Source: Bacteroidota bacterium (GTDB lineage Bacteria > Bacteroidota > Bacteroidia > Flavobacteriales > Flavobacteriaceae). From it: a DNA stretch of 16,958 bases. Position numbers and translations under genes: made by a program. The stretch covers positions 1 through 16,958 of the forward strand of contig JABHYI010000127.1 of assembly GCA_018656255.1 (NCBI GenBank), read 5' to 3'. Below, in pieces: positions 1-4,038 of the stretch; positions within the stretch are counted from its first letter, which is position 1; each line of letters starts with the position of its first letter. A model generated the notes under the pieces. It was not told the DNA's origin. It was given only the letters and a program-made list of their open reading frames with translations, and did no database searches.

Positions 1-786
1 AAAATCTGCAACTGTAAATATAGCCCAACCTTTTCCTGCTTTTGTTTCCCGGTGCTGCACATCTGTAACAACGCCTCCAAAGGTGAGTTCTTTACCAATA
101 TGTTTTTCTAGGGAATAAAAATCTGCCACACGGCAGTTTGTGAAAGTGTCCATCTCTACTTGGAAATCATCAAGTGGGTGCCCGCTAATGTAAACCCCAA
201 CCACTTCTTTCTCAAAATTTAATTTTTTCATGGTCCCCCAATCCTCACAGGGTGGCACTTGTGGCTCCGGAATTTGCACTTCACTTGCCTCTCCAAATAA
301 GCTCACTTGGCTGCTATTTTCTGTTTCTTGGTAACGAGCTGCATACTTTAGAACTTTTTCATAAAAAGTAATGCCGTCGCCATCTTCATGCATGTATTGA
401 GCTCGATGATTATTGAAGCTATCAAAACCTCCTCCCAACACTAAGTTTTCAAAGGCTTTTTTATTGGCGGCTCTCAAATCAATGCGTTTAGCCAAGTCAA
501 AAATAGATTTATAATTTCCGTCTTTTCTGTTTTCCACAATGGTGGCAACAGCATTAGCTCCTACTCCTTTTATAGCACCCATACCAAAGCGAACAGCGCC
601 CTTATCATTTACAGAGAATTTATAAAAACTCTCATTTACATCTGGCCCTAAAATGGCAAGCCCCATGCGCTTACACTCTTCCATAAAAAAGGTAACCTGT
701 TTGATATCTCTCATGTTGTTGCTCAAAACTGCTGCCATATATTCTGCAGGGTAATGGGCTTTTAAATAGGCGGTTTGATAGGCAAT
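1..786 (-). CDS. dnaE: DNA polymerase III alpha subunit, continuation of dnaE after the in-frame TGA (partial at window edge)
   Basis: Translating the minus strand in the same frame past the TGA gives 262 uninterrupted codons that are plainly the next part of DnaE. They begin IAYQTAYLKAHYPAEYMAA, then continue through the end of the fingers and the helix-hairpin-helix region (FGMGAIKGVGANAVATI, DLRAANKKAFENLVLGGGFD). A beta-clamp-binding motif, QVSLF, lies at 295-309, followed by HPLDDF and the start of the OB-fold region (LTFGGVVTDVQHRETKAGKG). The C-terminus lies outside the window. There is no frameshift and no other stop. The first possible internal restart is an ATG at 736-738, 17 codons after the TGA, with no obvious promoter. 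I treat this as the second part of one gene rather than an independent gene. Confidence 0.85.
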   Translation of the reverse strand, partial: MAYQTAYLKAHYPAEYMAAVLSNNMRDIKQVTFFMEECKRMGLAILGPDVNESFYKFSVNDKGAVRFGMGAIKGVGANAVATIVENRKDGNYKSIFDLAKRIDLRAANKKAFENLVLGGGFDSFNNHRAQYMHEDGDGITFYEKVLKYAARYQETENSSQVSLFGEASEVQIPEPQVPPCEDWGTMKKLNFEKEVVGVYISGHPLDDFQVEMDTFTNCRVADFYSLEKHIGKELTFGGVVTDVQHRETKAGKGWAIFTVADF

Positions 787-789
787 TCA
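787..789 (-). other. In-frame TGA inside dnaE where a Trp codon (TGG) is expected
   Basis: The plus strand reads tca here, so the minus-strand codon is TGA in the context GCC TGA ATT. The surrounding protein reads SHSTCYA-stop-IAYQTAYLKAHYP. As I recall, flavobacterial DnaE has Trp between these segments, and other bacteria have a hydrophobic residue. One G-to-A transition (TGG to TGA) explains it. TGG is used for Trp elsewhere in the same gene (for example W16, W26, W34), so it is not a wholesale codon reassignment. Confidence 0.9.
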
Positions 790-3700
790 GGCATAGCAGG
801 TAGAGTGACTTTTATTAAAGGCATAACTAGCAAAGGCTTCCCAATCCTTCCATATTTTTTCTAGTTTTACCGCATCATGACCATTGGCAACAGCATTTTT
901 TATAAAACGAGGCTTCATTTTATCAAGAACTGCTTTTTGCTTTTTACCCATGGCCTTACGCAAGACATCTGCATCACCTTTACTGAAATCTGCGAGCTTT
1001 TGAGAGAGCAACATTACTTGCTCCTGATAAACGGTAATTCCGTAGGTTTCATCAAGATACTCCTCCATAGCAGGAAGATCATATTGTATGGCTTCCTCTC
1101 CATTTTTACGCCTAATAAAGCTAGGGATATACTCCAAAGGCCCTGGTCTGTAGAGGGCATTCATTGCAATAAGATCCCCAAAAACAGTTGGTTTCAACTC
1201 TTTCATGTATTTCTGCATTCCTGCAGATTCGTATTGAAAAATACCCACTGTTTCTCCTCTTTGAAATAGCTCGTAGGTTTTCTGGTCATCGAGGGGGAAG
1301 TTATCTGGATCTAAGTCAACACCATGTTTGTGCTTTACTATTTTTACTGTGTCTTTGATAAGAGTCAAGGTTTTAAGACCCAAGAAGTCCATCTTTAAAA
1401 GTCCTGCGCTCTCTACCACAGAGTTATCAAACTGGGTAACATATAAATCACTATCCTTTGCTAGGGCTACAGGTACAAAATTGGTAATATCACTTGGAGT
1501 AATAATTACCCCACAGGCATGAATACCAGTATTACGGATCGAACCTTCTAATATTTTCGCCTGTCCAATGGTTTGAGAGGTTAAGTCTTTGCCGTCTGCC
1601 AGGGTAATTAGTTCTTGCACCTTGGGTAGCTCATCACTCCTAAACTTACCCCGAAGCGCTTTTTCATCCATGCCAAAGATTTTATTTAGCTTGGTCATGT
1701 TTGGTATTAACTTGGCAACGCGATCTGCATCACTCAGCGGCAAATCAAGTACACGGGCGGTATCTCTAATAGCAGATTTTGCTGCCATGGTTCCGTAGGT
1801 GATAATTTGCGCTACTTGATTGCTACCATATTTTTCTATGACATAATCCATAACCTTACCTCTTCCTTCATCATCAAAATCTATATCAATATCGGGCATC
1901 GATACACGATCTGGATTCAGAAAACGCTCAAAAAGTAGATTGTACTTAATAGGGTCTATGTTTGTAATCCATAAGCAGTATGCAACAACAGAACCTGCTG
2001 CAGAACCACGACCAGGGCCCACAGAAACATTCATATTCCTTGCCTCTCTAATAAAATCTTCTGTAATTAAAAAGTACCCTGGATAGCCTGTGTTTTGAAT
2101 TACATCCAACTCAAAATTAATGCGCTCTGTAATGTCAGCAGCTTCTTTTTTATGTGCATCACTCTGCCCTTTAAGAGCTGGGTAGCGTTTTTGAGCGCCT
2201 AAAAAAGTAAGGTGTTTTAAAAACTTGTTTTCTCCTCTTTTCCCGCCATCCTCTTGGTCTTTCTCAACAAGAAACTCTTGTGGTATATCAAATTTTGGCA
2301 GCAAGACATCTCGCTGCAACGAAAAGGGGCTTACTTTTTCTATAACCTCACTAATGTTTGCAATAGCTTGCGGAAGGTCTTTAAAAAGAGCCTTCATGGC
2401 AGCTTGACTCTTAAAATAATATTCTTGATTTGGAAGCCCGTATCTGTATCCTCTACCTCTACCTATTGGGGTAGCCTGTTTCTCACCATCTTTTACACAT
2501 AATAAAATATCATGTGCATTGGCGCTTTTTTGATCAATATAGTAGGTGTTATTTGCAGCAATTAGTGGCACCTGGTGCTTTTTAGAGAATGAAACTAAGG
2601 TTTGGTTAACCCTGTTTTCATCCTCTTGATCGTGACGCATAATTTGCAAGTAAAAATCAGGACCAAAGGTTTCTTTCCACCACAAAAGAGCCTCCTCTGC
2701 TTGTTTCTCTCCAACATTTAAAATTTTACTAGAAACCTCACCATACATACCGCCAGAAAACACCATGAGATCTTCTTTGTATTTTAAAATTACCTCACGA
2801 TCTATTCTTGGCACATAATAAAACCCGTCTATGTATGATATGCTTGACATTTTGGCTAGGTTATGATAGCCTTTTTTGTTCTTAGCTACCAGTATGATTT
2901 GGTAGCCATTATCTTTTTGTGTTTTGTCTTTATGGTTTGTGCACACAAAAAACTCACAACCTACTATTGCTTTTAAATACGTAGGCTCTTGGGGTTTTTC
3001 TGACACTACGCCATCAAAATCTGTGGCAGTGTCATCTATGGCGTTGTAGGCCTGCAAATCTGCCTTGTAGGCCGCTTTTAAGGATCTATTGTGGTTATTT
3101 ACCGAACGTGTAAAATGAAACGCTCCCATCATATTACCCGTATCGGTAATAGCAACTGCAGGCTGGTTGTCTGCCACTGCTGCATCTACCAAATCTTGAG
3201 TGCTGGAGGTAGACTGCAAAATAGAATATTGAGAGTGATTATGCAGATGGGCAAAAGGAGCCTGTTTTAACACAGCAATATTCTCTTTGATTTTTTGAGA
3301 AGATACTTTCTCTGAAACCATTGTTGCCTCCAACTGTTTTTTTATTTTCTCTGAGGCCCTCTTGAGATTAATATGCTTTAGGCCAATAAGAGCTATGGTT
3401 TGGGGATTTTCTTTAGAAAATTGCTCAAAATAATCTGGTGGGCAGTCAAGCTCCTCAAGAGTAAAGATTTGACGACGAACAAGCTCTAAAAAACATCGTG
3501 TTGTAGCCTCTACATCTGCAGTGGCATTATGAGCCTGCGCAAAGGGTTGTTGAAATAAAAATTGGTGCAACTCTGTTAGGGTTGGTAATTTAAATTTTCC
3601 ACCTCTACCCCCTGGTATTTGACACATTTGCGCCGTAGTTTCTGAACAAGTATCCAAAAGAGGCATGCTAGGCAAAGGGTTTTCCATTCCTAAACGCAGA

Positions 3701-4038
3701 AACTCTGCTCCCATAATATTGAGGTCAAACTTCACGTTTTGCCCAACAATAAAAGAAGTTTTAGAAAGCGCCTGTTGAAACTTCTCTATCATCAAAGAAA
3801 GCTCAATCCCTTCTTGCTGTGCTAACTCTGTAGAAATTCCATGAATTTTCTCTGCATCATAAGGGATGTTGTATCCAGTTGGCTGCACTAAATAATCCTG
3901 ATGCTCTATAACCCTTCCCATGGTATCGTGCAACTGCCATGCAATCTGTATACAGCGCGGCCAGTTATCACTATCTGTCAATGGGGCTTTCCAATTTCTA
4001 GGAAGTCCAGTGGTTTCGGTATCAAAAATTAAATACAA
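787..4038 (-). CDS. dnaE: DNA polymerase III alpha subunit with fused proofreading exonuclease, N-terminal 1083 residues up to an in-frame TGA
   Basis: This is the replicative polymerase subunit that extends DNA chains. A DEDDh 3'-5' exonuclease is fused at the N-terminus (about 1-190), with D6/E8, D105, H170 and D175 visible. A PHP domain follows from about 260 (HLHNHS at 264-269). The polymerase palm carries the catalytic aspartates D718/D720 (PDIDIDFDDE) and D884 (KMDFLGL). The family in Flavobacteria is about 1450 residues with this architecture, by recollection. The start is TTG (4036-4038): the preceding in-frame codons hold no ATG or GTG before a TAA at 4051-4053, and MYLIFDTETTGLP is the family's usual N-terminus. 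The frame stops at TGA 787-789 directly after SHSTCYA, where relatives have a Trp codon, then continues without further stops to the window edge. Function of the whole gene is certain. Whether a full-length protein is made is not. Confidence 0.95.
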   Translation of the reverse strand: MYLIFDTETTGLPRNWKAPLTDSDNWPRCIQIAWQLHDTMGRVIEHQDYLVQPTGYNIPYDAEKIHGISTELAQQEGIELSLMIEKFQQALSKTSFIVGQNVKFDLNIMGAEFLRLGMENPLPSMPLLDTCSETTAQMCQIPGGRGGKFKLPTLTELHQFLFQQPFAQAHNATADVEATTRCFLELVRRQIFTLEELDCPPDYFEQFSKENPQTIALIGLKHINLKRASEKIKKQLEATMVSEKVSSQKIKENIAVLKQAPFAHLHNHSQYSILQSTSSTQDLVDAAVADNQPAVAITDTGNMMGAFHFTRSVNNHNRSLKAAYKADLQAYNAIDDTATDFDGVVSEKPQEPTYLKAIVGCEFFVCTNHKDKTQKDNGYQIILVAKNKKGYHNLAKMSSISYIDGFYYVPRIDREVILKYKEDLMVFSGGMYGEVSSKILNVGEKQAEEALLWWKETFGPDFYLQIMRHDQEDENRVNQTLVSFSKKHQVPLIAANNTYYIDQKSANAHDILLCVKDGEKQATPIGRGRGYRYGLPNQEYYFKSQAAMKALFKDLPQAIANISEVIEKVSPFSLQRDVLLPKFDIPQEFLVEKDQEDGGKRGENKFLKHLTFLGAQKRYPALKGQSDAHKKEAADITERINFELDVIQNTGYPGYFLITEDFIREARNMNVSVGPGRGSAAGSVVAYCLWITNIDPIKYNLLFERFLNPDRVSMPDIDIDFDDEGRGKVMDYVIEKYGSNQVAQIITYGTMAAKSAIRDTARVLDLPLSDADRVAKLIPNMTKLNKIFGMDEKALRGKFRSDELPKVQELITLADGKDLTSQTIGQAKILEGSIRNTGIHACGVIITPSDITNFVPVALAKDSDLYVTQFDNSVVESAGLLKMDFLGLKTLTLIKDTVKIVKHKHGVDLDPDNFPLDDQKTYELFQRGETVGIFQYESAGMQKYMKELKPTVFGDLIAMNALYRPGPLEYIPSFIRRKNGEEAIQYDLPAMEEYLDETYGITVYQEQVMLLSQKLADFSKGDADVLRKAMGKKQKAVLDKMKPRFIKNAVANGHDAVKLEKIWKDWEAFASYAFNKSHSTCYA

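What the first reader, a model, noticed from the sequence alone, without database searches (positions are those of the whole stretch)
787..789. Single in-frame TGA at an expected Trp codon inside the replicative polymerase gene dnaE
Seen: DnaE reads without interruption for 1083 codons, hits TGA, and continues in the same frame for 262 more codons of clearly homologous protein to the window edge. One transition from TGG explains it. Known: dnaE is essential, and TGA is the stop most easily misread by tRNA-Trp, which would restore the expected residue. All 14 complete genes here end in TAA (13) or TAG (1), none in TGA, though that sample is small. Inference: a sequencing or assembly error or recent mutation is the simplest explanation. 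Read-through, a suppressor tRNA, a second functional dnaE or a two-piece polymerase are the interesting ones. The flanking context (TGA followed by A) is not the leakiest known.
Basis: partly seen in the sequence, partly recalled or inferred. Interest (0 to 1): 0.75.

Follow-up and report, generated by a model that had tools for sequence, protein, structure and literature searches.

The report
Stray stop codon in dnaE assembly
A gene for the main DNA-copying enzyme of an uncultured bacterium contains one stop codon in the middle, and the checks that could be made point to a one-letter error or a passing mutation in a draft genome, not to a new way of reading genes.

Summary
In detail: dnaE (minus strand, 4038 to the contig edge) has one in-frame TGA at 789-787 (codon 1084), and the frame continues 262 codons. 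The window is one whole contig of a fragmented draft genome (315 contigs, 77.7% complete). Intact copies exist: the closest differs at 7 residues plus the stop over 1346 codons. None of 109 other loci (107 distinct) has a stop there. A code change is practically excluded: of 379 aligned reference Trp codons only this one is a stop, TGA ends 6 of 123 aligned gene ends, and release factor 2 keeps its TGA-dependent frameshift. The part after the TGA is under purifying selection much as in intact relatives. No second dnaE or intein was found in the held sequence. Best reading: a sequencing or assembly error near a contig end, or a rare or recent nonsense variant. Reads would decide; I could not see them. 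The TTG start is not a second defect; the four closest relatives share it. Low interest.

The parts
787..789 (-). In-frame TGA, codon 1084 of dnaE; TGG in the closest relatives
787..4038 (-). dnaE up to and including the TGA: DEDD-type exonuclease (RNase_T), PHP, polymerase (DNA_pol3_alpha) and finger domains; TTG start shared by the four closest relatives
1..786 (-). dnaE continued in the same frame after the TGA (262 codons): HHH_6 domain and a QVSLF motif that resembles a clamp-binding motif (label recalled, not tested); cut by the contig end, about 140 C-terminal residues missing compared with P0001

Best explanation
This is the ordinary replicative polymerase gene dnaE of a Flavobacteriaceae draft genome (genus Patiriisocius, probably marine). 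One codon reads TGA most likely because of a consensus error in a fragmented metagenome-type assembly, 787 bases from a contig end; failing that, it is a rare or recent nonsense variant that the assembly picked up. In living cells of this lineage the codon is presumably Trp and the enzyme is made in one piece. Shown: the TGA, its uniqueness in the sample, intact copies elsewhere, purifying selection downstream, and TGA in use as a stop. Inferred: that the TGA is absent from, or rare in, the reproducing population, and that the gene is essential here.
For: The genome is in 315 contigs, 77.7% complete, and this contig ends inside dnaE. A full-length protein (P0001, 1486 aa; its cluster has 746 members, which I could not see) differs from the window over 1346 codons at 7 residues, at the reading of the start codon and at the stop; downstream of the stop it is identical. 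None of 109 other loci (107 distinct at the site) has a stop there. All 120 listed of 8000 protein homologs have a residue there, 117 Trp and 3 Tyr, which counts for less because predicted proteins cannot show a stop. Among 45,145 aligned residues on 22 of the 61 sampled contigs, 375 of 379 reference Trp are Trp and only this one is a stop. dN/dS after the stop is 0.019-0.023 against four relatives, and 0.036-0.053 before it; pairs of intact relatives give 0.006-0.021 and 0.042-0.054, so there is no marked decay after the TGA. Only one dnaE was found. Truncation would remove the HHH domain (1126-1214 in P0001) and the QVSLF motif at 1244, which should be lethal (inference).
Against: Reads and coverage were not available, so an error is not shown directly. 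No general excess of broken genes was seen. In one search no other stop fell in the middle of a match; six others lie at alignment positions 5-25, none opposite a Trp, most simply over-extended or spurious reference ORFs (not tested), and one 83-aa ORF matched in two pieces, a possible frameshift. So this genome does not look grossly error-ridden. dN/dS after the stop is at or slightly above the range of the intact pairs.
Confidence: 0.92

Rival explanations
1. The second branch of the best explanation, stated apart (its 0.22 is part of the 0.92): a real nonsense mutation carried by a minor, dying or suppressor-bearing subpopulation and captured as the assembly consensus.
For: Metagenome assemblies mix strains (general knowledge); one transition is enough, since the relatives' codon is TGG.
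Against: An inactivating change in a gene that is presumably essential, with no second copy found, should be rare and would seldom become the consensus (inference).
Confidence: 0.22
2. A real nonsense mutation fixed in this strain, tolerated because near-cognate tRNA-Trp misreads UGA often enough to make sufficient full-length polymerase.
For: The codon is Trp in the closest relatives, and UGA is the stop that tRNA-Trp can misread (recalled; UGA readthrough by tRNA-Trp(CCA) variants in E. coli is described in PMC13092985, abstract and passages seen). The downstream region is conserved.
Against: RF2 is intact with its own UGA-dependent frameshift. The 10 relatives with a secE locus (of 12 genomes searched) all have tRNA-Trp with CCA beside it; the six same-genus ones have an ordinary 5-bp anticodon stem. 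No strong structure follows the stop: the next 80 nt fold at -8.3, the gene's 80-nt windows at -14.2 on average. None of the 109 loci has it. Open point: this genome's own tRNA-Trp was not found.
Confidence: 0.04
3. UGA means Trp in this organism (genetic code change).
For: The TGA sits at a usually-Trp position; none of the 14 complete genes of the window ends in TGA.
Against: 1 of 379 aligned Trp codons; TGA ends 6 of 123 aligned gene ends and 16 of 282 ORFs besides dnaE; RF2 is present with its programmed frameshift.
Confidence: 0.001
4. A two-piece polymerase: the second half is started separately at the ATG 17 codons after the stop, or joined as in the split DnaE of cyanobacteria.
For: An ATG is at codon 1101. 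The stop comes 11 residues after the place that resembles the cyanobacterial split-intein junction (C-extein CFNK in Ssp DnaE, PMC2664965 passages; AFNK from residue 1073 here; judged by the shared FNK, no alignment made). C-terminal DnaE fragments starting at the matching Met occur in the protein database: 32 of 120 listed, 7 of them in clusters whose longest contig exceeds 5 kb.
Against: No intein domain on either piece; the frame runs straight on. In 35 of 37 other genomes with a match, the main dnaE match lies in one open frame of 1437-1595 aa (the exceptions are G009, 477, and G038, 975). 25 of the 32 fragments are from contigs under 5 kb, as contig-edge gene calls would give; the other 7 were not resolved. 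The best fragments listed are at most 81% identical, so they are not from this species.
Confidence: 0.01

Closest known systems
Bacterial replicative polymerase III alpha subunit DnaE (TIGR00594/NF004226)
   Same: Domains, and 81-96% identity over the whole query in 8 of 10 same-genus genomes (one more matches in part at 76%, one has no match)
   Different: One in-frame TGA at codon 1084
UGA-to-Trp recoded bacteria (genetic code 4)
   Same: One TGA at a Trp position
   Different: Only one such codon of 379, RF2 retained, TGA used as stop
Naturally split DnaE with trans-splicing intein (cyanobacteria)
   Same: Interruption 11 residues after the place that resembles the junction
   Different: No intein domain found, no separate second gene found

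Membership tests
DnaE, DNA polymerase III alpha | Match to the DnaE superfamily model with polymerase, finger and PHP domains | tested here: met
   TIGR00594 885.6 bits, cut-off 434.35; PF07733, PF17657, PF02811
UGA=Trp genetic code | Many in-frame TGA at conserved Trp positions | tested here: not met
   1 of 379 aligned reference Trp codons, 156 matches on 22 of 61 sampled contigs
UGA=Trp genetic code | TGA no longer used as stop | tested here: not met
   Of 129 matches that reach the end of a reference ORF, 123 have a stop there and 6 of these are TGA; 17 of 283 ORFs end in TGA, dnaE's included
UGA=Trp genetic code | Loss or decay of release factor 2 | tested here: not met
   prfB at C225 above cut-off, with SPF and GGQ motifs (labels recalled) and a CTT TGA C frameshift site
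UGA=Trp genetic code | tRNA-Trp with UCA anticodon or 4-bp anticodon stem | tested here: inconclusive
   No tRNA-Trp among 25 tRNAs found in this incomplete genome, none with UCA; secE not found here; tRNA-Trp with CCA at 10 of 10 relatives' secE loci, 5-bp stems in the 6 of these that were checked
Cyanobacterial-type split DnaE | Intein halves flanking the split | tested here: not met
   No intein domain by Pfam in either piece or in the intact homolog
Selenocysteine or other recoding at TGA | Recoding structure after the TGA and dedicated machinery | tested here: inconclusive
   No strong structure in the next 80 nt; SelA, SelB and tRNA-Sec were not searched

The most novel reading that the evidence does not exclude
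The TGA is real and fixed in this strain, and its replicative polymerase depends on inefficient misreading of UGA by tRNA-Trp in competition with RF2, so that replication capacity is tied to RF2 and tRNA levels.
Probability: 0.03. Interest if true: 0.6.

Novelty: not a real feature. Interest (0 to 1): 0.08.

Why it matters
As found, it matters mainly as a caution: a lone stop in a presumably essential gene near the end of a contig in a draft genome is not evidence of recoding. If the TGA were real and fixed, a replicative polymerase relying on stop-codon readthrough would be surprising.

Tried and rejected
Code change: rejected. Second dnaE: none found in the held genome. Split polymerase or intein: no support. 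Pseudogene decay: no support; the region after the stop is about as constrained as in intact relatives (synonymous divergence from L005 is saturated, so that pair says little). TTG start as a second defect: rejected; the same TTG in L002-L005. Structured readthrough signal: none seen in the next 80 nt. Phage records: no near match to window 600-1000. Solved structures: DnaE structures match up to the residue before the stop; nothing more was made of it.

Paper searches: one search gave one paper (listing and start of abstract seen; by its title on Thermosynechococcus, not followed); two searches gave none; one search gave 8 of 9 papers naming Patiriisocius (listing only); one search listed 8 of 43, of which I saw passages of PMC2664965; one search listed 8 of 47, of which I saw the start of the abstract and passages of PMC13092985. 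No claim of absence from print is made.

Sampling limits: 61 of 315 contigs (window included) were scanned, chosen partly because they carry tRNAs or prfB and partly by number; 22 of them matched the 800 kb of G007 that I fetched. Rows dropped: matches below 75% identity or 40 residues (70% and 60). In one search two loci are the same DNA as two others (L169 = L005, L192 = L014 at the site); I keep 109 loci and give 107 distinct, of which 92 Trp, 11 Tyr, 2 Phe, 2 Leu.

Full report
Observation. The minus strand from 4038 to 1 reads as dnaE with a single in-frame TGA at 789-787, codon 1084. The first piece has exonuclease, PHP, polymerase and finger domains; the second has the HHH domain that follows in the intact protein. 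The window is the whole of contig C50 of a draft genome of 1.73 Mb in 315 contigs, 77.7% complete and 4.96% contaminated. The genus is Patiriisocius (Flavobacteriaceae) by this reasoning: the same-genus genome G008 has its dnaE on a contig of 1,478,771 bases, the length given for the contig of the protein named Patiriisocius marinistellae (P0016). The contig ends inside dnaE, and the last 140 residues of P0001 were not found elsewhere in the genome.

Intact copies. The closest protein, P0001 (1486 aa, cluster of 746 members that I could not see), differs over the shared 1346 codons at seven residues, in how the start codon is written, and at the stop. Among 120 listed homologs of 8000, 117 have Trp and 3 Tyr at the site (two of the three Tyr had missed my first pattern). 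In DNA, 109 of 109 loci have a sense codon there: 94 TGG, 11 Tyr, 2 Phe, 2 Leu; two loci are repeats of others, leaving 107. In one search, 38 of 39 genomes searched (own included) have a dnaE match; the one without is a 77% complete same-genus genome.

Is TGA a sense codon here? No. I compared 61 contigs of this genome with 800 kb of its relative G007. In 156 matches covering 45,145 residues on 22 contigs, 379 reference Trp positions read 375 Trp, 1 Cys, 1 Thr, 1 Leu and 1 stop, the stop being this one. Six other stops in these matches fall at alignment positions 5-25, none opposite a Trp; over-extended or spurious reference ORFs are the simplest reason, which I did not test. One 83-aa ORF matched in two pieces, a possible frameshift. 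Of 129 matches that reach the end of a reference ORF, 123 have a stop in this genome and 6 of those are TGA; the other 6 have no stop there. Of 283 complete ORFs of 100 aa or more, 17 end in TGA, dnaE's included. The RF2 gene is present above its cut-off and keeps SPF and GGQ. Its start lies in another frame that ends TAT CTT TGA C, the form of the programmed frameshift by which RF2 senses UGA termination (the classic form and its meaning are recalled).

Suppressors. The 25 tRNA genes found include none for Trp and none with anticodon UCA. This is probably a gap in the assembly: tRNA-Trp sits beside secE, with CCA, in the 10 relatives where secE was found, and secE was not found here (nor in G002, 90% complete). 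Six same-genus tRNA-Trp genes have a full five-pair anticodon stem, not the four-pair form reported to promote UGA readthrough (PMC13092985, start of abstract and passages).

Selection. Against four relatives dN/dS is 0.036-0.053 before and 0.019-0.023 after the stop; three pairs of intact relatives give 0.042-0.054 and 0.006-0.021. The downstream part is not visibly decaying.

Other mechanisms. No intein domain, although the stop lies 11 residues after the place that resembles the split-DnaE junction of cyanobacteria. No strong fold after the stop. No second dnaE in the held sequence; about 22% of the genome is missing, so this is not absolute. Of 120 listed C-terminal fragments in the protein database, 32 begin at the Met that matches codon 1101; 25 of the 32 come from contigs under 5 kb and 7 from longer ones (6,030 to 250,906 bases). 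I read them as contig-edge gene calls but could not see the 7 contigs. Loss of everything after the stop would remove the HHH domain and a motif at 1244 that resembles a clamp-binding site, so a truncated enzyme is unlikely to support replication (inference).

Verdict. An error in a fragmentary assembly is most likely (about 0.7), a rare real variant next (about 0.22); both are ordinary, and together they make my 0.92. Dependence on readthrough is not excluded, because this genome's own tRNA-Trp and the reads are unavailable, but is given about 0.03-0.04.

Noticed in passing
window 4036-4038 (-): dnaE starts at TTG in this genome and in its four closest relatives (L002-L005), while four other same-genus genomes (L006-L009) use ATG; in this genome an in-frame stop five codons upstream leaves TTG as the only ATG/GTG/TTG start for the full N-terminus.
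   Followed up: partly
L056 (G000:C225): prfB has a CTT TGA C programmed-frameshift site between its short first frame and the main frame.
   Followed up: yes
window 787-4038 (-): DnaE carries an N-terminal DEDD-type (DnaQ-like) exonuclease domain fused to the polymerase; the 120 listed homologs are listed with PF00929 too.
   Followed up: no
proteins P0145, P0154, P0155, P0160, P0171, P0187, P0220: C-terminal DnaE fragments of 349-429 aa that begin at the Met just after this site, in clusters whose longest contig is 6,030 to 250,906 bases; contig-edge gene calls or other interruptions of dnaE, not resolved.
   Followed up: partly
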